Notes under the pieces: generated by a model
The model's database searches: none
Seen by the model: only the letters and a program-made list of their open reading frames with translations
Told to the model about the DNA's origin: nothing
Made by a program: the position numbers and the translations under genes
Part shown: one piece after another, positions 51,464-64,000 of the stretch
How positions within the stretch are numbered: position 1 is the stretch's first letter
Layout of the letters: every line of letters begins with the position of its first letter
Origin: Jiangella alkaliphila
GTDB taxonomy: Bacteria > Actinomycetota > Actinomycetes > Jiangellales > Jiangellaceae
Direction of reading: 5' to 3'
DNA length: 64,000 nucleotides
Assembly (NCBI RefSeq): GCF_900105925.1
Contig: NZ_LT629791.1
Span: forward strand, 4,186,001-4,250,000

Positions 51464-54265
51464 TCAGGGGGCGGGCCGCGCCAGGGCGGTGCGCAGCTGC
51501 CGGCGGCTGGTGACGTCGAGCTTCGTGAAGACCTTGCGCAGATGCCACTCCACGGTGTGGCGGCTGAGGTAGAGCTCGGAGCCGATCTCGGGATTGGTGC
51601 GTCCGTCTGCCGCCAGACGGGCGATGTGCAGCTCCCGGGCGGTGAGCTCCTTGCGGGTGTCGGCCGTCAGCCTGCGCACCGTCTCGCCGGTGGCGGCCAG
51701 CTCACGGCGGGCCCGCTCGGCGAACGCCTCGACGCCCATGGCCGTGAGCGAGTCGTGGGCGTGCCGAAGATGCGGGCGTGCGTCGGCGCGGCGATCGGAC
51801 CGGCGCAGCCACTCGCCGTAGAGCAGCTGCGCCCGCGCCAGCTCGACGCGCAGGCCGACGCGACCGAGGCGGTCGATCGCCTCACGGTAGAGCTCCTCGG
51901 CCCGGCTGCCGTCCCGCAGCAGCGCCTCGGATCGGGCCGCGACGCCCAGCGCCCAATCGGTGCCGCAGATCTCGGCCGTCTCGGTGAGCAGTTCGGCCGC
52001 GGCGACCGCGGTCGCGAGGTCGTCACACCGCGTCGCCGCCTCGACCAGCTCGGCCAGCGTCCAGCCACCCGGCTGGGTCCCGACGGGAAGCAGCGTCATT
52101 CGCCCGTCGTCCTCGACCGGTCCGAGAAACTCCCGGCAGTGCGCGAGCGCCGCCGCATAGTCGCCGTTGCCGTTGCACAGCACCGCGTTCGCCCAGGACG
52201 TCAGCGCGATGACCAGCCCTTCGCCACGGGCGACGGCATCGGCCTTCGCGGCCGCGATCAGCGGTTCGCCGTGTTCGACGTCGCCGCGCAGCGCTGCCAG
52301 GCCGATGGCGGCGTACGGATGCAGCGTCGTGCCGGCCACTTCGGCCAGTGCGTCGGCCTCGTCGAGCAGGGCGCCGGCAGTGACGAGATCGCCGCCGAAG
52401 ATGTGCGGGTAGACCACGCTGTTCAGCGCGAACTGGAGGGCGTTCAGAGCGCCGGCCTCGCGCGCGAACTCGAGGTGCCGGCCGGCCAGTGCGCTCCAGC
52501 CGGGCAGGTCCCATCCGTCGCAGGCGAGCGCGCCGGCGAGCACCAGGAACCGCAGCCCTTCCTCGACCGGGAGCTCTTCGGCTCGGTACGTCTCGACGAC
52601 CCGTCTCATCAACGGCGCGGCGGCGGCGAGGCCGTCCACCTGCAGCACTGCCATGCACTGCAGGAGCAGGTCGCTTCGACGCGGGCGGAGCGGAACCGGC
52701 GCGTTCCGGGCCGCCCGCGCGACCTCGACCGCCCCGGGCTCGCCCACGCGCCGTGCGGCGAACAGGGTGGCTTCGAGCGCCGTCACGTAGGTGTCGAGCG
52801 CGAGCTCGAGATCGAGCGGCTCCAGCCGGCGAGCGGCGGCCAGCAGCAGCGGCACGGCTTCGTGGCCGCGGTTCGAGGCGAAGGCGATCTGGGCCCGGAG
52901 CACTTCGGCGCGAGCGCGTTGCAGCTCGCTCAGTGGACGGCGCCCGGCCAGTGCGAGCAGCTGCAGAGCGCGCTCGAACGCACCGGCGTGCACCATGGTC
53001 TGCGCCGCCTTGAGCTCACGCTCGACGCGCTCGGCCTCGTCCGGGGTCAGCCTGGCCGCCCGTTCGAGGAACGCGGCCGCGGCGGCGAGGCCACCGTGTG
53101 CCAGCGCTCGGTCGGCGGAGCGCTCCAGCTCCGCGGCCACCGTCTCGTCCGGGCCGGAGGCGGCGTGCGCGCGGTGCCACGCCAGCCGGTCCGGGTCGCG
53201 GTCCGCGTCGGTGGCGTCGGCGAGGGCCAGGTGCGCCGCCTGCCGGTCCCGTTGCCCGGCCGAGCGGTAGACCGCGGAGCGGACGAGCGGGTGACGGAAC
53301 CGCACCGTGTCCCACACGTCGATCAGCTCCGCCGCCTCGGCCGGGCTGGCCGCGTCCATGCCGAGGCCCAGGCGCTCGGCCGCGCGCCAGAGCAGACCGG
53401 CGTCGCCGAGCGGCTCGGCCGCCGCGATCAGCAGGAGGCGCCGGGTCTCGTCGGGCAGCGGCTCGAGCCGGCGCCGGAACCGTTCCTCGATGCGGCCGGA
53501 CACGCTGCCGCCGGCTGCCTGCTCCGGCCCGAACGTCAGCTCCGCCGACGACAACCACCGCGGCAGCTCCACCAACGCCAGGGGGTTCCCGCGGGTCTCC
53601 GCGAGGATCCGTTCGCGCACCCGGCTGTCCAGCGGCGTTGTGACCACCGACTCCAGCACCGCCACGGCGTCGGCCTTGTTCAGCCCGTGCACCGTCAGCA
53701 GCGGCAGGCCGGCCCAGGCCTGCTCGTCCTCGCTCGCCCGGGCCGCGACGACCATGACGATCGACTCCGCGGCCAGCCGGCGCGCGACGAAACTGAGAAT
53801 CTGCGCGGAGGCCTGGTCGAGCCACTGCGCGTCGTCGATCACGCACACCAGGAGCTGATCGCCCGCGTGCTCGGAGAGCAGGGTCAGGACGCCCAGCCCG
53901 ATCATGAACCGATCCGGCGGCCTCCCGGTGCGTAGGCCGAACGCCGTGCCCAGGGCCTCGGCCTGCGGCGCCGGCACCCCTTCCAGCCCGTCGAGCAGGG
54001 GCGCACACAGCTGATGGAGGCCGGCGAACGCGAGCTCCATCTCCGACTCGACACCCGCCACCCGCAGGTCCCGCCAGTCCGACGCCGCATCGACGAGGTA
54101 GTCCAGCAGCGCCGTCTTGCCGATGCCCGCCTCACCCTGCATCACGAGCACGGCGCTATGGCCCGACCGCGCCGCTCGGAGCAGGTCGAGCAGTACTCCG
54201 CACTCCTTGTCCCGCCCTCGTAACCACCGTGGAGGGCGCGGCCCGAGCTGCACGACTGCCTCCAT
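51464..54265 (-). CDS. LAL-type LuxR-family regulator with AAA ATPase domain
   Basis: 933 aa, the usual length of large ATP-binding LuxR (LAL/MalT-like) regulators. The N-terminal STAND-type ATPase has Walker A GEAGIGKT (about residue 45) and Walker B LLVCVIDDAQWLD (about 138). A long TPR-like helical region follows. The C-terminus is a LuxR helix-turn-helix (LTARELHIARLAADGRTNPE; then LYLSRHTVEWHLRKVFTKL). Often found with secondary-metabolite or maltose-type genes; target not evident here. Confidence 0.93.
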   Translation of the reverse strand: MEAVVQLGPRPPRWLRGRDKECGVLLDLLRAARSGHSAVLVMQGEAGIGKTALLDYLVDAASDWRDLRVAGVESEMELAFAGLHQLCAPLLDGLEGVPAPQAEALGTAFGLRTGRPPDRFMIGLGVLTLLSEHAGDQLLVCVIDDAQWLDQASAQILSFVARRLAAESIVMVVAARASEDEQAWAGLPLLTVHGLNKADAVAVLESVVTTPLDSRVRERILAETRGNPLALVELPRWLSSAELTFGPEQAAGGSVSGRIEERFRRRLEPLPDETRRLLLIAAAEPLGDAGLLWRAAERLGLGMDAASPAEAAELIDVWDTVRFRHPLVRSAVYRSAGQRDRQAAHLALADATDADRDPDRLAWHRAHAASGPDETVAAELERSADRALAHGGLAAAAAFLERAARLTPDEAERVERELKAAQTMVHAGAFERALQLLALAGRRPLSELQRARAEVLRAQIAFASNRGHEAVPLLLAAARRLEPLDLELALDTYVTALEATLFAARRVGEPGAVEVARAARNAPVPLRPRRSDLLLQCMAVLQVDGLAAAAPLMRRVVETYRAEELPVEEGLRFLVLAGALACDGWDLPGWSALAGRHLEFAREAGALNALQFALNSVVYPHIFGGDLVTAGALLDEADALAEVAGTTLHPYAAIGLAALRGDVEHGEPLIAAAKADAVARGEGLVIALTSWANAVLCNGNGDYAAALAHCREFLGPVEDDGRMTLLPVGTQPGGWTLAELVEAATRCDDLATAVAAAELLTETAEICGTDWALGVAARSEALLRDGSRAEELYREAIDRLGRVGLRVELARAQLLYGEWLRRSDRRADARPHLRHAHDSLTAMGVEAFAERARRELAATGETVRRLTADTRKELTARELHIARLAADGRTNPEIGSELYLSRHTVEWHLRKVFTKLDVTSRRQLRTALARPAP

Positions 54266-55855: not shown

Positions 55856-58579
55856 TCAGGGCGCCGGCGGCTGGTCCACCCGGGCCTGGGCCGCGGCCGC
55901 GCGTACCCGCGCCGCCGCGGCGCCGTTCCCGTCGCCGGCGTCGTCGAGGCAGTCCGCCAGGCTGGTCAGCGACACCGCCTGGTCGTAGAACCCGCCGACT
56001 GACGCGAACAGCCCGGCCGCCTGCTCGTACGCCTCGACGGCGGCCGGCCAGTCGCGCAGGCCGCGGTGGGCGGCGGCCATGCTGTCCCAGGTGACGGCGC
56101 GGTAGAACGTGTCGTCGAGGGCGGTCACCAGCTCCAGCGCCTCCCGGCAGCAGACCAGTGCCTGCTCGTACTCGCCGCGCAGGACGTGGGCCCAGCCGAC
56201 CGCGTTGAGCGCGTCCGCCACGCCCGGAGGGTCGCCCGCGGCCCGGAACAGCGCCAGCGCCTCACGGTTGTGCGCGAGCACCTCGTCGGCCCGTCCGAGG
56301 TCCTCGAGGATGATCGCGATGCTGCGCAGCGCCCGCGCCTGGCTCGGCCGGTCGCCCGCCCGCGCCCACAGCTCCAGGGCCGCCCGCAGCTCGGCCAGCG
56401 CGTCGTCCGGGCGGCCCTGCCGGCCGAGCGCGCGCCCGAGCCAGCGGTGTGAGGCCGCCCTGAGCCCGTCGTCGCCGAGCCGGTCGGCGATCCGCAGGCA
56501 CGTGCGGGCCAGGTGTGCGGCGTCGGGCCAGCGGCCCTGCCGGTCCACGAGCACCATGACGGCCGCGGCCAGCTCCCAGACGATCCCGGCCGGTCCGGTC
56601 GTCGCGGCCGCCTCGACGGTCGCGAGCAGCGCGTCCCGCTCGGAGTCGAACCAGGCCAGCATCTCGGCCTCGGACCCGAACGCGTGGCCGTCGTCGGCAT
56701 GGGCCGCGCTCAGGCGTGGCGCCTCGTGGGCCGGGCGGAACGTCGTCACCGCGGCGACGGCCGAGCGGGCCCGATGCTCCACCAGGCGGTCCGCGGCGGC
56801 CGCGACATCCGCCGGGTCGTCGCCGGCGGCCAGCTCCGCGGCGTACTCGCGCAGCAGGTCGTGCAGGCTGAAGCGGCCGGGCGTGCGCTCGACGACGAGG
56901 TGGGCTCGGGTGAGCTCGCCGAGCAGGCCACCGGCCTCCACCCGCCCCACGCCGCCGAGCGCCGCCGCGGCGGGGACGTCCAGGTCCGCTCCGGGCGCCT
57001 GGCCGGCCCGCCGGAACAGCAGCGCGGCCGCCGGGCCGAGCCCGGCATACGACCACGAGAACACCGAGCGCAGGTCGATGGCCTGGTCGTCGTCGGCGAG
57101 GGCGTCCAGCCGGGTGCGCGCCACGCGGAGGTCGGCGGCCACCGTTCGCGGCGAGCCGGGCGTCGTGTTGATCCGGGCCGCGACGACGGTGAGCGCCAGC
57201 GGCAGCCGGGCGCACGCCTCGACCAGCTCGTCGACCGCGGGCTCGACGTCCCCCGTCACCCGGGCGTCGAGGCGGCCCAGCAGCAGCCGGCGGGCCTCCT
57301 CGGCCGAGGGCAGGTCCAGCGCGAGCAGGTGCGCGCCCGCCGTCGCGTTCAGGCCCGTCAGCCGCCGGCGGCTGGTGACCAGCGCCGCCGAGCCCGGTGA
57401 CCCGGGCAGCAGCGGCCGCACCTGCGCGGCGTCGAGGGCGTTGTCGAGCACGACGAGCATCCGGCGGCCGGCCAGCAGGCTCCGGTACAGCCCGAGCTGT
57501 GCGTCGGCCGTCGCCGGGATGCGCGCCGCCGGCACCTGAAGCGCTTCGAGCAGCGTGCGCACGGCGTCCTCGGGCGCCAGCGGGCGGCCGCTGGGTGCGA
57601 AGCCGCGCAGGTCGAGGAAGAGCTGCCCGTCGGGGAACCGCGCGGACGCCGACCGCCGCGCCCACTGCACGGCCAGCGCGGTCTTCCCGACGCCCGCGGT
57701 CCCGGTGATCGCCACGCAGGCCGGCGGGTCTCCGTCGGGCACCAGCCGCCGGTCCAGTTCGGCGAGCGCCTCGTCGCGGCCGGCGAACCCGGCCGCGGCC
57801 GGCGGGAGCTGGTGCGGGACCGGCGGGGCGACGTCGCGGTCGTGGGCCGGTCGTTCCCGGAGCAGGGCGGTGTGGACGGCGCGCAGTTGCGGCCCGGGGT
57901 CGGCGCCCAGCTCGTCGGCTATCCGGGAACGGACCCGCTCGTACTGTTCCAACGCCTCGGCGCGCCGGCCGGATCGCTCCAGCGCGGTGAGCAGCAGGGC
58001 CCACAGCGGCTCGCGCAGCGGATGGCGCGCGGTGAGCTCACGCAGCTGAGGGAGGAGCTCGGCCTGCCGCCCGGCCTCGAGGTCCAGCCGGATCCGCCGC
58101 TCCAGCGCGCCGGCGTACCGCTCGCTCAGCCGGTCCCGTTCGGCCTGCAGCCCCGACGTCTCGACGTCGTCGAACGGGATGCCCCGCCAGAGCGCGAGCG
58201 CCTGCTCGAGCGCGGCGCGCTCGTCCGGCGCGCCCGCCAGCTCGTCGGCCCGGTCCAGCGTCCGCTCGAACCTCCGCACGTCGACCTCGTCGTCGCCGAG
58301 GCGCAGCGCGTAGCCGTGCACGGTGGTGGCGATGGCGTCGCGGCCGAGCACCTGCCGCAACCGGACGACGTAGGTCTGCAGGCTGCGTCGCGGATGCGCC
58401 GGTTCCTCGTCCGGCCAGAGGACCAGCGCCAGATCCTCGACGGACGCACCGCGCTCGCCGGCCACGGCCAGCGCGGTGAGCAGAGCCCGCAGCCGGCCCG
58501 TCGCCGGCTCGACGCGACGGCCGTCGATCTCCAGTTCCAGGGGCCCCAACAGCCGGAGGGCCGGCCGCGATGTGCTCAC
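55856..58579 (-). CDS. AfsR/SARP-family regulator with BTAD and NB-ARC ATPase domains
   Basis: 907 aa. The N-terminal OmpR-type winged helix (LRLLGPLELEIDGRRVEPAT; LVLWPDEEPAHPRRSLQTYV) and bacterial transcriptional activation domain (BTAD) occupy residues 1-250. An NB-ARC ATPase follows, with Walker A GTAGVGKTAL (about residue 305) and MLVVLDNALDAAQV as Walker B. A TPR-rich C-terminus completes the AfsR architecture. GTG at 58579 lies 6 nt behind a TATGGT -10, suggesting a leaderless transcript. Targets unknown; divergent from the secreted pseudoprotease gene. Confidence 0.93.
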   Translation of the reverse strand: MSTSRPALRLLGPLELEIDGRRVEPATGRLRALLTALAVAGERGASVEDLALVLWPDEEPAHPRRSLQTYVVRLRQVLGRDAIATTVHGYALRLGDDEVDVRRFERTLDRADELAGAPDERAALEQALALWRGIPFDDVETSGLQAERDRLSERYAGALERRIRLDLEAGRQAELLPQLRELTARHPLREPLWALLLTALERSGRRAEALEQYERVRSRIADELGADPGPQLRAVHTALLRERPAHDRDVAPPVPHQLPPAAAGFAGRDEALAELDRRLVPDGDPPACVAITGTAGVGKTALAVQWARRSASARFPDGQLFLDLRGFAPSGRPLAPEDAVRTLLEALQVPAARIPATADAQLGLYRSLLAGRRMLVVLDNALDAAQVRPLLPGSPGSAALVTSRRRLTGLNATAGAHLLALDLPSAEEARRLLLGRLDARVTGDVEPAVDELVEACARLPLALTVVAARINTTPGSPRTVAADLRVARTRLDALADDDQAIDLRSVFSWSYAGLGPAAALLFRRAGQAPGADLDVPAAAALGGVGRVEAGGLLGELTRAHLVVERTPGRFSLHDLLREYAAELAAGDDPADVAAAADRLVEHRARSAVAAVTTFRPAHEAPRLSAAHADDGHAFGSEAEMLAWFDSERDALLATVEAAATTGPAGIVWELAAAVMVLVDRQGRWPDAAHLARTCLRIADRLGDDGLRAASHRWLGRALGRQGRPDDALAELRAALELWARAGDRPSQARALRSIAIILEDLGRADEVLAHNREALALFRAAGDPPGVADALNAVGWAHVLRGEYEQALVCCREALELVTALDDTFYRAVTWDSMAAAHRGLRDWPAAVEAYEQAAGLFASVGGFYDQAVSLTSLADCLDDAGDGNGAAAARVRAAAAQARVDQPPAP

Positions 58580-58585
58580 GCGGGC

Positions 58586-58615
58586 ACCATAGAGGGCCGG
58601 TATTTGCGTGCGCAA
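58586..58615 (-). promoter_or_regulatory. promoter, apparently leaderless, for the AfsR-like gene
   Basis: Minus-strand TTGCGC (58615-58610), 18 nt, TATGGT (58591-58586), then 6 nt to the GTG. No Shine-Dalgarno sequence. Confidence 0.5.
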
Positions 58616-58753: not shown

Positions 58754-61219
58754 ATGGCGGACTACGGCGATTTCAGGGTTCTGCGGCTGCGAGGCGTTTG
58801 CGCCGCGATCATCGCGTCAGTCGTTGCCGGGGCGGGTCTGGCCCTACCGGCGCCGGCGGTGACCGGTGGCGGGACGGTGAGCCCGGACTGGGCGCGACCG
58901 CAGGTCCGGATCGAGGTGGGCGAGGAGCAGGCGTGCTCCGGGGCTCTGGTCGCACCGCAGTGGGTGCTCACCGCGGCGTCCTGCTTCACGGCCGATGGTG
59001 CTTCCGACGAGGTGCGTACGGGTGCGGCTCCAGCAGGAACGACGGCGACCGTGGGGCGGCCGGACCGGTCCACGGCGGACGGGTTCGTGCGCGGTGTCGA
59101 CTGGGTCGTGCCGCACCCGGACCAGGACGTGGCGCTGGCGCGGCTGACGCTGGGTGTGGACATCGCGCCGTGGCCGATCGCCGACGCTCCCGCGTCGGCC
59201 GGCGAGGCGCTGGCGATCAGCGGCTTCGGCCGGACCGAAGGCGTGTGGGCACCTGACGACCTGCAGGCGGCCACCGTGACGGCGAGTGAGGTCACCGACG
59301 TGTCGATCGGGCTGAGCGCTCCCGCCGAGTCGTCGGCGGGGGCATGCGAGGGCGACGCCGGCGCCCCGGTGACCCGGTCCGTGAACGGCGCGGTGCAGAT
59401 CGTCGGCGTCGTCGTCGGCTCGGCCAAGAACGGCTGCCTCGTCGCCCCGGGCGACGGGGAGAGCACGGCGCGGGCCGTCCGCGCCGACGTCCTGGCGGAC
59501 TGGATCGACCGGAACACGGTCTGGTATCGCAACGCGTTCGTCGCGTCGTACACCACCTCGGACGCCGACGGCGACGGGCACCTCGACGGCATCGGCGGCT
59601 ACAACCTCGCCGACCCCAACGATCAGATCGTCGCCGTCGACTACGAGGGCACCGGGCGACTGGATCATCTGCTGATCTACCGACCGGGTGCACAGAAGAA
59701 GTACTGGGTGGTCAAGCGTCGTGCCGACGGGTCGTTCGAGCGGGTGTTCCAGAACGCCGACGCCGGCATCGGGCCGGTGCCGACCGGCGGGACCGTGATG
59801 CTCGGCCAGGCCCGCGACCGGGTCTTCGCGTTCGACTGCCATCGGTCCGGCAAGCAGGACTGCATCGTCGTCTACCGCCCGGGTGTGGTCAGCGGCGACA
59901 GCGAGAGCGGTTCGTACAGCGTCTTCGAACGCGATCCGGACGGCGGGTACGAGGTGGTCTTCCGCCACAAGCCGGCCCGGCTGAACGCGGCGTCAACCCA
60001 GATGCTGGCGCTGGACGACCACGGAGCAGCGGCGGGCCAGCACCTCGTGTTCTACCGGCCCGGTGCCGGCCTGGTCACGATCCGCTCCTGGATCTTCGAC
60101 GACGACACCGAGGCGTGGACGTCCGGGCCGGACGTCTACACGACGGAGAGCGCGGGGATCGGCGGCTTCGGCGTCAACCAGGCGCGGGACCGGATGATCG
60201 CGTTCGACTGCCACCGCTCCGGGCGCGAGGACTGCCTCGTGGGCTACCGGCCGGGTGTGGTCGCGTCGGACGGCGAGAGCTCGGCCTACCGGGTGATCGA
60301 ACGGGCCGCCGACGGCACCTACCGCACCGTGTCCCGGCAAGTGCTCGGCCAGCTCAACGCGACCTCCGACCAGCTGATCGCCTACGACTACGACGGGTCC
60401 GGGCTCATGGACCACCTGGTCTTCTACCGGCCCGGCGGACGCCTGGTGACGGTGCTGCCCTGGCGCAGCGGTGCGGGCGGTACCTGGGCGGCGGGCCCGG
60501 CCGTGTACTCCAGCACGGTCGGGATCGGCGGCTACAACCTGGCCCAACCCCAGGACCGGCTGGTCGCCTACGACAACAACCACCGGGGTTCGCCCACCGA
60601 TCTCGTCGCCTACCGGCCGGGGTCGCGCACCGCCTGGGTGCTCGGACGCCAGGTCGAACGCGGTGACGCCGCCATCACGGTCACCCGGCCGGCCGGCGCC
60701 GACTCGATCGTGGAGACCTTCGACTATCCCGTGGACTTCCAGCACGAGTTCACCGGTACGTCCGGTCGCGTCGACTGGGGCACGGACGAGGCCGAGGCGA
60801 TGAACTTCGAACTGCTCTCCGGCGACGGCGGGATCATCTGGGTCTCGTGCAGCACGGCCCCGGAGGACGGAGTCGGCGTGGTCAAGGTGTTCCCACGCTT
60901 GTTGAACGGTGAGGACGAGGTCGGTGAGCCGCACCTCGGCCAGACGGCGGTGTGCTTCAAGGTGCTCGGATCATCGGGGTACGTGAAGCTTCGGGTCCCG
61001 AGCGTCCTCGAGGTCCAGGGCGACAGCCGCTCACCGGGGGCCGGCCATGACCTGGACGCGACGGTGGTGAACCTGACGTCCGGCGATGAGCGGACCGAGC
61101 GCGTCGAGCGGGACCAGAGCGAGCAGTTCGGACACGTGGACGCGAACTGTGATGAGAGCCATCCGGACTTCCCCGACGTCTGCAACGAGACCCTGCTCGA
61201 ACTGCGGATCGTCGACTGA
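58754..61219 (+). CDS. secreted trypsin-fold pseudoprotease with FG-GAP-like repeats
   Basis: 821 aa. A signal region (about residues 10-38) precedes a trypsin-like domain (40-250). At the catalytic His position the motif reads WVLTAASC (Ser76 instead of His), the Asp is kept (D125 in HPDQDVALARL), and the catalytic Ser motif is CEGDAGAP (Ala202 instead of Ser). Both the base and nucleophile are lost, while both disulfide Cys and the fold remain. Residues 255-640 contain about five FG-GAP/VCBS-like blades with a repeated GIGG(Y/F) ... D-x-x-G-x-x-D-x-L-x-x-YRPG pattern. A beta-rich C-terminal domain (640-821) is unidentified. Probably a secreted binding protein. It is 13 bp upstream of the ALF protein gene, likely one transcript. 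Confidence 0.85.
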   Translation: MADYGDFRVLRLRGVCAAIIASVVAGAGLALPAPAVTGGGTVSPDWARPQVRIEVGEEQACSGALVAPQWVLTAASCFTADGASDEVRTGAAPAGTTATVGRPDRSTADGFVRGVDWVVPHPDQDVALARLTLGVDIAPWPIADAPASAGEALAISGFGRTEGVWAPDDLQAATVTASEVTDVSIGLSAPAESSAGACEGDAGAPVTRSVNGAVQIVGVVVGSAKNGCLVAPGDGESTARAVRADVLADWIDRNTVWYRNAFVASYTTSDADGDGHLDGIGGYNLADPNDQIVAVDYEGTGRLDHLLIYRPGAQKKYWVVKRRADGSFERVFQNADAGIGPVPTGGTVMLGQARDRVFAFDCHRSGKQDCIVVYRPGVVSGDSESGSYSVFERDPDGGYEVVFRHKPARLNAASTQMLALDDHGAAAGQHLVFYRPGAGLVTIRSWIFDDDTEAWTSGPDVYTTESAGIGGFGVNQARDRMIAFDCHRSGREDCLVGYRPGVVASDGESSAYRVIERAADGTYRTVSRQVLGQLNATSDQLIAYDYDGSGLMDHLVFYRPGGRLVTVLPWRSGAGGTWAAGPAVYSSTVGIGGYNLAQPQDRLVAYDNNHRGSPTDLVAYRPGSRTAWVLGRQVERGDAAITVTRPAGADSIVETFDYPVDFQHEFTGTSGRVDWGTDEAEAMNFELLSGDGGIIWVSCSTAPEDGVGVVKVFPRLLNGEDEVGEPHLGQTAVCFKVLGSSGYVKLRVPSVLEVQGDSRSPGAGHDLDATVVNLTSGDERTERVERDQSEQFGHVDANCDESHPDFPDVCNETLLELRIVD

Positions 61220-61232
61220 GGGAGTGACGGCG

Positions 61233-64000
61233 ATGAAGGCGATGCGCGTGTGGCGCGAGCGGGCGCCATGGCAGACGATGACGGTGGCCGGTGCTGTGCT
61301 CTCGTTGCTTCTCGTGGGCAGCCCCACGGCCGACGACCGGGCCGCGGCGGCCGAGGCGGATCCACCCGCCGCCCCGGCCTGCGAACGCCAGGTGGTACTG
61401 GACGCCTGGGTCACAGGCGGTCTGAACGTCGCTCCGGCGGCGGAGGAGGCCCTGCTCGGAGATGACGCGGCGATCTGCGCCTTCCTCGACCGGCTTCCCC
61501 GGCTCGCGGCGCAGGACGACCGTGAGCAGGTCAACCGCGTCAAGTCCGGCGGAGGCCCTGAGGTGGCCGCCGCCGCCAACGCGGCTCTGAGGTCGGACGA
61601 CGAGGGCGCCGTGGAGGCGTTTCTCGATGGCGGCTGGGAGCTTGCTCGCCAGATCGACCTGCGCGCCAGGGTGAACGAGATGAAGTCGGCGGGTGGACCG
61701 GAGGTCCGGGCCGCCGCGAACGCGGTGCTGCGCAACGGCTCGCGTGAAGCGCTGGGGCAGTTCGTCGATTCGGGCTGGCTGGTGCCGTACCGGATGGATC
61801 TCCGGGCGACCGTCAATCGTGCGATGTCCCAAGGTGGCCCGCAGGTGCGGGCCGCGGCGAACCGGGCGCTCCAGGACGGCAGTCAGGAGATGCAGGAGCG
61901 GTTCGTCCAGATCGACTGGGGCGTGGCCCAGGCCCGCGACAACGAGGCTCAGACGCTGAACGATCTCCGGGCGAGCGCCACCGAGGCGACCCGCCTGGCG
62001 GCCTTCGAGACGATCTCGGCGGTCGCACAGGCCGACCGGGCGGAGGCCGAGTCCCTGGCGGCCAGGAACGATGCGGAAGAGGCACAACGTCTCGCCCTGG
62101 CGGCCGGACGGGAGTCCGCAGCTGCCCGGACTTACGCGCAACAGGCCGCCGAGGCTGCCGACCGCGCCGCGGCGGCCGCCAACGTCGCTGTCCAAGCGGC
62201 GCGGGCCGCGGCCGACGCCGCGCGCGCCGCCGCGGGGGCCGCCGGACGCGCGGCGACCGCGGCAGCGCGGGCCCACACGTCCTCTGACGAGGCGTGGGCG
62301 GCCGCGACGGCGGCAGAGCTGGACGCCGGCGCTGCTGCCGCGGCGCTGGCTCACAACCGGCGAATGCAGGAGGTCGGTGCGCAGATCTCTGACTGGCGCG
62401 CACCCATCGATCAGATCGCGGCAGTCGCCGCTCGGGCGTTCGCCGCGGCCGACGCCGCCGAGTCGGCGCGGGCGAACACCGAGGTCGCCGGGCGCGCGGC
62501 TGAGGCTGCCGGCCATCATGCCGGGGACGCGAGCGCCGAGGCCAGGGCCGCGTTCGCCGCGGCCGGGCGGGCACGAACCAGCGCTGAACGGGCGCGGCGC
62601 GCCACTGCGGAGACGGTCCGGCACGCGAACGTCGCCCAGGACGCGGCCGGCCAGGCGCGCGACGCCGCCACGCGGGCGGTGTCCTATGCGGAGGCGGCGG
62701 GGAGGGCGGCGGCGAGTGCGGCCGAGCACGCCGGCAGTGCCGTCAACGCGGCCCAGCTGGCGACCGAGCACGCGAACAACGCCTACCGCGCGGCGGAGGA
62801 CGCGTTGGATGCGGCGGAGCTCGCTCAGACCATCTATACGTCGGCGCGGTTGGCCGACGCCGAACGGCTCCAGGACGAGCTGGAGACCGAGTTGTCCTTG
62901 GCCCGGCATGTCAGCGCGGAAGCGGCCGAGGTCCGCTGGGAGGACGTTCGCAGCTTCGACGTGCCGATGCGCGACTATCACGATCCGCAGGTCGATGCCC
63001 TGATCGCCGAGGCCGTCGACGATGAGACCGACCGGGCGGTGGCGGTGGGCCATGCGCGGGAGGTCGCACGGTACTTCGCGGTCGTGCCCGGCACGTGGAC
63101 CAGCTCGGCGGCTGTGGCCGCTCTCGGCGAGGACGACGACCGTGTGCTCGAGTTCGTCCGCAGCGGGCTGGCCCTCGCCGAGGAACAGGACGATCGCACG
63201 ACGCTGACGGGTCTCATGGTCACCGGCACCCCGGCCATGAAGGCCGCCGCGCAGGCCGCCCTCGACGCCGGCTGGCCCGACGTCATCGCGTTCCTCGACG
63301 ACCCGGACTATCCCGAGCGAGCGGCCGAAGAACGCGCGCGGGTCAACCGAATCCTGTCCGAGGCCCGCAGCGCCGGGAACGTCGAGACCGAGGAGGCGGC
63401 GAACATCGCCCTGCGCTCGGAGGATCCGGCCGCACTCGAGGTGTTCCTGGCGACGACACACAACACCGCTCGCACGATCGACGTCCGGGCGAAGGTCGGC
63501 GCGATCGCCGGCGACGAGTCCTACGGCACCGAGGTGCGCAACGGCGCCCAGGTCGCTCTCGCGGGCACGACGTCCATGCAGGTCGACTTCCTGGAGGTGG
63601 AGCAGCACCGCGCGGCCGAACGCGACTACGCGACCGCGACCCACAACTACATCGCCACCTCCTTGGTGATCGAGACGGCGCAGATCGCCGAGAAGGCCGT
63701 CCAACTGGCGCGCACCGCGCAGGCCGCCGCGGCGGATGCCCGCGGCGCGGCGGAGCAGGCCGTCGGTTACGCGAACGACGCCGGTGCGGCGGCCGGACGG
63801 GCGCAGGCGTTCGCCACCCAGGCCGTCGCCCACGCACAGGACGCCGCCGGATCCGCCGAGCGAGCGGCGCAGTCCGTCCGCACCGCTGCGGCCGCCACGC
63901 AGCAGGCCCAGCTGTCGGCCCGGCGGGCGTCCCTCTCGGCCGGCGCGGCACGCGCCTCGGCCGTGGCGGCGGCGCAGGACGCGGCCAGCGCGTTCGCCGC
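61233..64000 (+). CDS. large secreted ALF-repeat/alanine-rich coiled-coil protein, 5' part (runs off the window)
   Basis: 922 codons from the ATG at 61233 (GGGAG 8 nt upstream) to the edge without a stop. Residues 1-45 are a signal peptide (hydrophobic VAGAVLSLLLVGSPT, then AAAAEA). Three ALF repeats of about 47 residues follow (about 105, 152 and 199; consensus GGPxVxAAANxAL...FxxxG). An alanine-rich heptad region (240-560) predicts a long coiled coil. A second ALF set appears at about 665, 712 and 761, then a second coiled coil from 790. Such proteins in actinomycetes are often several thousand residues and may end in a toxin domain outside this window. Confidence 0.85.
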   Translation, partial: MKAMRVWRERAPWQTMTVAGAVLSLLLVGSPTADDRAAAAEADPPAAPACERQVVLDAWVTGGLNVAPAAEEALLGDDAAICAFLDRLPRLAAQDDREQVNRVKSGGGPEVAAAANAALRSDDEGAVEAFLDGGWELARQIDLRARVNEMKSAGGPEVRAAANAVLRNGSREALGQFVDSGWLVPYRMDLRATVNRAMSQGGPQVRAAANRALQDGSQEMQERFVQIDWGVAQARDNEAQTLNDLRASATEATRLAAFETISAVAQADRAEAESLAARNDAEEAQRLALAAGRESAAARTYAQQAAEAADRAAAAANVAVQAARAAADAARAAAGAAGRAATAAARAHTSSDEAWAAATAAELDAGAAAAALAHNRRMQEVGAQISDWRAPIDQIAAVAARAFAAADAAESARANTEVAGRAAEAAGHHAGDASAEARAAFAAAGRARTSAERARRATAETVRHANVAQDAAGQARDAATRAVSYAEAAGRAAASAAEHAGSAVNAAQLATEHANNAYRAAEDALDAAELAQTIYTSARLADAERLQDELETELSLARHVSAEAAEVRWEDVRSFDVPMRDYHDPQVDALIAEAVDDETDRAVAVGHAREVARYFAVVPGTWTSSAAVAALGEDDDRVLEFVRSGLALAEEQDDRTTLTGLMVTGTPAMKAAAQAALDAGWPDVIAFLDDPDYPERAAEERARVNRILSEARSAGNVETEEAANIALRSEDPAALEVFLATTHNTARTIDVRAKVGAIAGDESYGTEVRNGAQVALAGTTSMQVDFLEVEQHRAAERDYATATHNYIATSLVIETAQIAEKAVQLARTAQAAAADARGAAEQAVGYANDAGAAAGRAQAFATQAVAHAQDAAGSAERAAQSVRTAAAATQQAQLSARRASLSAGAARASAVAAAQDAASAFA

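What the first reader, a model, noticed from the sequence alone, without database searches (positions are those of the whole stretch)
58754..61219. Secreted trypsin-fold protein with both His and Ser replaced
Ser76 takes the place of the catalytic His and Ala202 that of the catalytic Ser, while Asp125 and the disulfide cysteines are kept. It is fused to about five FG-GAP-like blades and an unknown C-terminal domain. This seems a deliberate binding protein made from a protease scaffold rather than a decayed enzyme, since the long frame is intact.
Basis: partly seen in the sequence, partly recalled or inferred. Interest (0 to 1): 0.6.

Follow-up and report, generated by a model that had tools for sequence, protein, structure and literature searches.

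The report
Umbrella-toxin lectin arm, fused UmbA-UmbB
The inactive protease is the target-binding arm of a known kind of antibacterial particle, the umbrella toxin: its dead active-site groove has become a docking slot for an adaptor domain, which in this soil bacterium (genus Jiangella) is fused to the same chain instead of being a separate protein.

Summary
The 821-aa frame has Ser76 in place of the catalytic His, Ala202 in place of the catalytic Ser, and keeps Asp125 and the cysteines. The loss is old and family-wide: all 24 related UmbA-type domains tested have Ser/Thr at the His position and a conserved Arg160, and nearly all have lost the Ser. Ten ordinary trypsins keep His and Ser and lack that Arg. 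The protein is UmbA of an umbrella toxin particle (PDB 8W20/8W22). Its 'unknown C-terminal domain' is the adaptor UmbB: model versus UmbB1 gives Z 15.2, rmsd 1.6 Å over 113 residues. The gene is therefore an UmbA-lectin-UmbB fusion. The next gene, starting 13 bp downstream and running off the window, is umbC, with 8 ALF repeats and a DddA-like deaminase toxin domain. UmbA-UmbB fusions are already published, so this is a new member of a known kind. Two points are additional. The genome has no other UmbA or UmbB, so all five spokes should carry the same lectin. And the fused gene is a mosaic: the UmbA part groups with Myceligenerans, the UmbB part with Nonomuraea, with the switch at the UmbB docking motif, and UmbB follows the UmbC ring.

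The parts
58754..61219 (+). umbAB: UmbA-lectin-UmbB fusion, 821 aa
58754..58858 (+). hydrophobic N-terminus (residues 1-35), presumed Sec signal peptide; by eye only, no predictor run
   Evidence: inference
58865..59515 (+). trypsin-fold domain without catalytic His and Ser (residues 38-254)
   Evidence: PF00089 E 1.4e-17; 8w20_C UmbA1 E 1.7e-34
58979..58981 (+). Ser76 codon, catalytic His position
59126..59128 (+). Asp125 codon, catalytic Asp kept
59231..59233 (+). Arg160 codon = UmbA1 Arg156, published salt-bridge partner of UmbB's Glu; invariant in the UmbA domains, absent from the active trypsins compared
59357..59359 (+). Ala202 codon, catalytic Ser position
59537..60649 (+). six FG-GAP-like repeats, probable six-bladed beta-propeller lectin (residues 262-632)
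   Evidence: six motif repeats; PF13517 E 3.5e-5, below cut-off; strand pattern of a low-confidence model
60695..61216 (+). UmbB adaptor domain (residues 648-821) with docking motif SIVET, Glu654
61233..64000 (+). umbC, 5' part; runs off the window, stop at window-equivalent 65318 (1361 aa)
   Evidence: 8w20_A UmbC1 E 5.7e-41; PF03752 ALF, 8 stretches
61386..61925 (+). ALF repeats 1-4 of UmbC
63060..63614 (+). ALF repeats 5-8 of UmbC (start approximate)

Best explanation
The protein is the spoke of an umbrella toxin particle with UmbA and UmbB in one chain. It is exported. The trypsin fold has lost its catalytic His and Ser and uses its substrate groove to hold the extended N-terminal peptide of the UmbB domain (motif SIVET, Glu654 against Arg160). 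The UmbB beta-sandwich docks on ALF repeats of UmbC, encoded just downstream, so up to five spokes sit on the UmbC ring. The six-bladed propeller between the two domains binds sugars on a target bacterium, and the UmbC stalk tip carries a DddA-like deaminase toxin domain. Shown here: the family assignments, the family-wide loss of the triad, conservation of the two salt-bridge residues, the UmbB fold, the gene order, and the absence of any other detected UmbA or UmbB in the genome. Shown by others for S. coelicolor: assembly, groove binding without cleavage, lectin targeting and killing. Inferred: that the Jiangella particle assembles the same way, with the groove filled in cis, and kills actinobacterial competitors.
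For: Best PDB hits are umbrella UmbA chains: 8w20_C E 1.7e-34, 9oee_A E 3e-22. UmbC next door: 8w20_A E 5.7e-41 over residues 22-955, 8 ALF repeats. UmbB: hhalign 96.4% to stand-alone UmbBs of a genome that carries umbA and umbC beside them; the UmbB profile's only match in the window's genome is this domain (E 5.9e-9); the Myceligenerans fused domain and the stand-alone UmbB match 8w20_B (2.3e-13, 1.1e-17); model Foldseek E 6e-8, Z 15.2 to 8w22_B with the next best unrelated fold at 8.4. Arg160 and the motif Glu invariant or nearly so. No other UmbA in the genome, 56 of 56 candidates scored. Published biochemistry: PMC11062931, PMC13274773. The mosaic fits: UmbB follows UmbC.
Against: Nothing is shown by experiment in Jiangella. 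The full-length model is poor (mean pLDDT 45.5), so the cis docking is not modelled. UmbC lacks an evident twin-arginine signal, unlike S. coelicolor UmbC (by eye). No immunity gene lies beside umbC. In this strain the toxin domain has Gln where three relatives have His in the presumed zinc-binding motif, so this strain's particle may not be toxic.
Confidence: 0.95

Rival explanations
1. A secreted serine esterase like FusH of Streptomyces (inactivates fusidic acid), or a recently decayed copy of one.
For: NCBIfam FusH matches residues 8-278, E 6.9e-24; PDB UmbA chains are deposited as 'secreted esterase'.
Against: Score 84 against a cut-off of 999. Both His and Ser positions are lost, and lost across the family. 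The UmbB domain and the adjacent umbC are explained only by the umbrella system.
Confidence: 0.02
2. A true protease that lost its activity by chance in this strain.
For: Asp125 and the disulfide cysteines are kept.
Against: S76 and A202 are shared with species of other orders, and Arg160 is conserved with them. UmbA and active domains separate with 97/88 support.
Confidence: 0.01
3. The protein acts apart from UmbC, as a lone secreted glycan-binding adhesin.
For: Six propeller repeats suited to sugar binding; UmbA4-UmbB complexes are secreted without UmbC in S. coelicolor umbC deletion strains.
Against: umbC starts 13 bp after its stop codon, with the same gene order in J. muralis (two loci), Myceligenerans and Nonomuraea; UmbB and the ALF repeats share one history.
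Confidence: 0.02

Closest known systems
UmbA1-UmbA6 of Streptomyces coelicolor (umbrella toxin spoke; PDB 8W20/8W22, 9OEE)
   Same: Triad-less trypsin fold with Ser at the His position, conserved Arg, C-terminal propeller, encoded beside umbC.
   Different: UmbB is covalently attached at the C-terminus; trypsin domain only distantly similar to the best Streptomyces UmbAs (roughly 40% identity); no additional orphan UmbA in the genome.
UmbAB fusion proteins noted in PMC11062931 (Fig. 5c)
   Same: UmbA and UmbB in one chain; the published models place the UmbB N-terminus in the trypsin groove in cis.
   Different: Supplementary tables could not be read, so it is not known whether this protein or this domain order is among those listed. 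Another genome has the opposite order, UmbB-UmbA-lectin.
UmbC1 of S. coelicolor
   Same: Eight ALF repeats in two sets, alanine-rich stalks, deaminase toxin at the C-terminus.
   Different: No adjacent Imm1-type immunity gene; no evident twin-arginine signal; Gln for His in the presumed zinc motif in this strain.
FusH fusidic acid esterase (NF000157)
   Same: Homologous N-terminal region, secreted.
   Different: Scores far below cut-off; catalytic Ser and His positions lost.

Membership tests
UmbA | N-terminal trypsin-like domain | tested here: met
   PF00089 64.8 bits, cut-off 20.6; 8w20_C E 1.7e-34
UmbA | incomplete catalytic triad | tested here: met
   S76 and A202
UmbA | conserved Arg that pairs with UmbB's Glu | tested here: met
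   R160 aligns with UmbA1 R156
UmbA | C-terminal lectin domain | tested here: inconclusive
   six FG-GAP-like repeats and propeller-like strand pattern; sugar binding untested
UmbA | trypsin groove binds UmbB without cleaving it | not testable with these tools
   published for S. coelicolor
UmbB | disordered N-terminus, short helix, ten-stranded beta-sandwich like UmbB1 | tested here: met
   model pLDDT 73.6; 8w22_B Z 15.2, rmsd 1.6 over 113; Foldseek E 6e-8
UmbB | docking motif A-V-E-D with conserved Glu | tested here: met
   I-V-E-T here; Glu654 aligns with the near-invariant Glu of 33 UmbB sequences
UmbB | encoded as a separate secreted protein (usual, but not required: fused UmbAB proteins are published) | tested here: not met
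   fused C-terminal to the propeller; a published variant, so not treated as exclusion
[quoted passage not shown]
   umbC starts 13 bp after the umbAB stop
[quoted passage not shown]
   8 ALF stretches, alignment to 8w20_A over 22-955
UmbC | C-terminal polymorphic toxin domain | tested here: met
   PF14428 DddA-like 27.7 bits, cut-off 25, on the last 220 aa
UmbC | TAT secretion signal | tested here: inconclusive
   no adjacent Arg pair near the N-terminus by eye; no predictor run
FusH esterase | catalytic serine | tested here: not met
   Ala202 at the Ser position; score 84 against cut-off 999

The most novel reading that the evidence does not exclude
The fused gene records a module exchange. 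The UmbA part and the UmbB part of one open frame have different histories, and the switch lies at the UmbB docking motif: UmbB stays with its UmbC ring while the lectin arm is swapped between orders of actinobacteria. Fusion should also fix one lectin per particle, which would remove the lectin mixing that gives Streptomyces umbrella toxins part of their bet hedging.
Probability: 0.6. Interest if true: 0.45.

Novelty: new member of a known kind. Interest (0 to 1): 0.35.

Why it matters
It gives the strange dead protease a concrete role and places a two-gene umbrella toxin in Jiangella. The conflicting histories inside one gene are an independent natural check of the published model: the UmbA-UmbB contact is generic and exchangeable, while UmbB and UmbC co-evolve. 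A one-lectin, two-gene particle could be a simpler system for learning what a given propeller recognises.

Tried and rejected
Direct phmmer and profile searches of the Jiangella UmbB domain against the PDB found nothing meaningful; the link came through Myceligenerans and Streptomyces-type relatives and then the fold. The full-length AlphaFold model from four sequences was too poor to use for docking. Imm1 search: one family member in the genome, about 37 kb from the end of umbC and in an unrelated setting, none in J. muralis. FusH esterase rejected. No papers on FusH in the library. More fusion members were sought in 394 genomes across the phylum; besides the window's own gene, strong matches appeared in one other genus only and were of the UmbA or propeller part. 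The genome search could not be centred on the Nonomuraea or Myceligenerans loci.

Full report
Observation. The frame 58754-61219 (+) is real: 821 aa, ATG start, no stops, GC3 90%. Pfam Trypsin matches residues 41-228 at E 1.4e-17. In alignments with two genuine trypsins of the same genome, Ser76 stands at the catalytic His, Ala202 at the catalytic Ser and Asp125 at the catalytic Asp; the cysteines are kept. The propeller has six FG-GAP-like repeats rather than five.

What it is. The best sequence matches among solved structures are not proteases but chains of the umbrella toxin particle: 8w20_C (UmbA1, E 1.7e-34) and 9oee_A (E 3e-22, taken here to be the UmbA4 of PMC13274773 from its annotation and length). 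The next gene, starting 13 bp after the stop and running off the window, encodes 1361 aa with eight ALF repeats and matches UmbC1 (8w20_A, E 5.7e-41). The Nature 2024 paper on these particles (PMC11062931) states that no S. coelicolor UmbA keeps the full triad, that purified UmbA trypsin domains have no detectable activity, and that the groove holds the N-terminal peptide of the adaptor UmbB through a Glu-Arg salt bridge.

The 'unknown' C-terminal domain is UmbB. Residues 648-821 match stand-alone secreted proteins in a genome (G391) where one such gene is followed by two umbA genes with a umbC nearby, and the other lies next to a umbC (hhalign 96.4%). A profile of those proteins and the Myceligenerans fused domain finds one place in the window's whole genome, this domain (E 5.9e-9). 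The fused domain of Myceligenerans pegani and the stand-alone protein both match UmbB1 in the PDB. A 33-sequence alignment shows the shared docking motif (AVED in Streptomyces, IVET here) and the invariant Tyr-Pro, Gly, Cys and Phe columns. The AlphaFold model of the domain (mean pLDDT 73.6) superposes on UmbB1 with Z 15.2, rmsd 1.6 over 113 residues; the next unrelated fold scores 8.4.

The lost triad is ancient. Among the UmbA-type rows (the window and its kin), the His position is Ser or Thr in every one; where the Ser position can be read it is Ala, Thr or Met in all but one row (L102); Arg160, the published salt-bridge residue, is present in all. The ten ordinary trypsins in the same table keep His and Ser and have no Arg there. 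In the tree of 24 UmbA-type and 10 active domains the two sets are separated by one branch with 97/88 support. S76 and A202 are invariant in all four Jiangella copies and shared by Myceligenerans and Nonomuraea.

Organism and spread. Close relatives lie in Jiangella rhizosphaerae and J. muralis (two loci), which match the 'same genus' genomes G002 and G009, so the window is from a Jiangella genome. Only 2 of 11 other Jiangella genomes have the gene, so the locus is patchy.

Mosaic history. The trypsin and propeller parts of the window protein are 69% and 67% identical to Myceligenerans but 45% and 45% to Nonomuraea gerenzanensis. The UmbB part is 33% and 76%, and the UmbC ALF repeats 34/31% and 81/81%. 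The change falls at residues about 650-660, the docking motif. Trees of the two parts conflict, each at 100/100. UmbB thus follows UmbC, and the lectin arm is exchangeable, as the published binding data would predict. This rests on two distant relatives only, and the donors are not known.

One lectin per particle. The window's genome has no other UmbA (56 of 56 candidates scored) and no other detected UmbB (not every first-look candidate was scored there). With UmbA fused to UmbB, every spoke should carry the same propeller. This is an inference; in S. coelicolor several UmbAs share the particles (PMC11062931; PMC13274773).

Caution on toxicity. The UmbC C-terminus is a DddA-like deaminase. 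Residue 1270, beyond the window end, is Gln where both J. muralis copies and Nonomuraea have His. From general knowledge of deaminases that His is a zinc ligand, so the toxin of this strain may be inactive, or the base may be an assembly error. No immunity gene is adjacent.

Verdict. Observation confirmed, interpretation right, but the protein belongs to a published family and fused UmbAB proteins are published too: new member of a known kind. The module exchange at the fusion point is the part I did not find described in the sections of the two papers that I read; the supplementary tables were not available.

Noticed in passing
window-equivalent 65040 (UmbC residue 1270; L025, past the window end): The deaminase motif reads QLE (codon CAG), while both J. 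muralis copies and Nonomuraea read HLE. The toxin domain of this strain may be inactive, or the base may be an assembly error.
   Followed up: partly
L117 6934-13388 (Nonomuraea gerenzanensis NZ_LT559118.1, filed as a plasmid of 11.85 Mb, no annotated features in this stretch): An UmbAB fusion and a umbC whose reading frame is split between two frames in its 5' part; UmbB and the UmbC ALF repeats are about 76-81% identical to Jiangella while UmbA is 45%.
   Followed up: partly
L083 (genome G182): A fusion in the opposite order, UmbB then UmbA then a lectin-like region, so UmbA-UmbB fusions probably arose more than once.
   Followed up: no
window 51464-54265 (-) and L025 8468-11284 (+): Two LuxR-family AAA_16 regulators, 73% identical over 936 residues, flank the umb locus in opposite orientations.
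   Followed up: partly
window 55856-58615 (-): Divergent neighbour of umbAB is a BTAD/NB-ARC/TPR regulator of the AfsR/SARP type; possible regulator of the locus.
   Followed up: partly
L025 7319-7402, L028 and L029 downstream of umbC: No evident immunity gene follows umbC in the window's genome or at either J. muralis locus; how the producer protects itself is unexplained.
   Followed up: partly
L102 (genome G384): One UmbA-type domain keeps the catalytic Ser (GDSGGP) although the His position is Ser.
   Followed up: no
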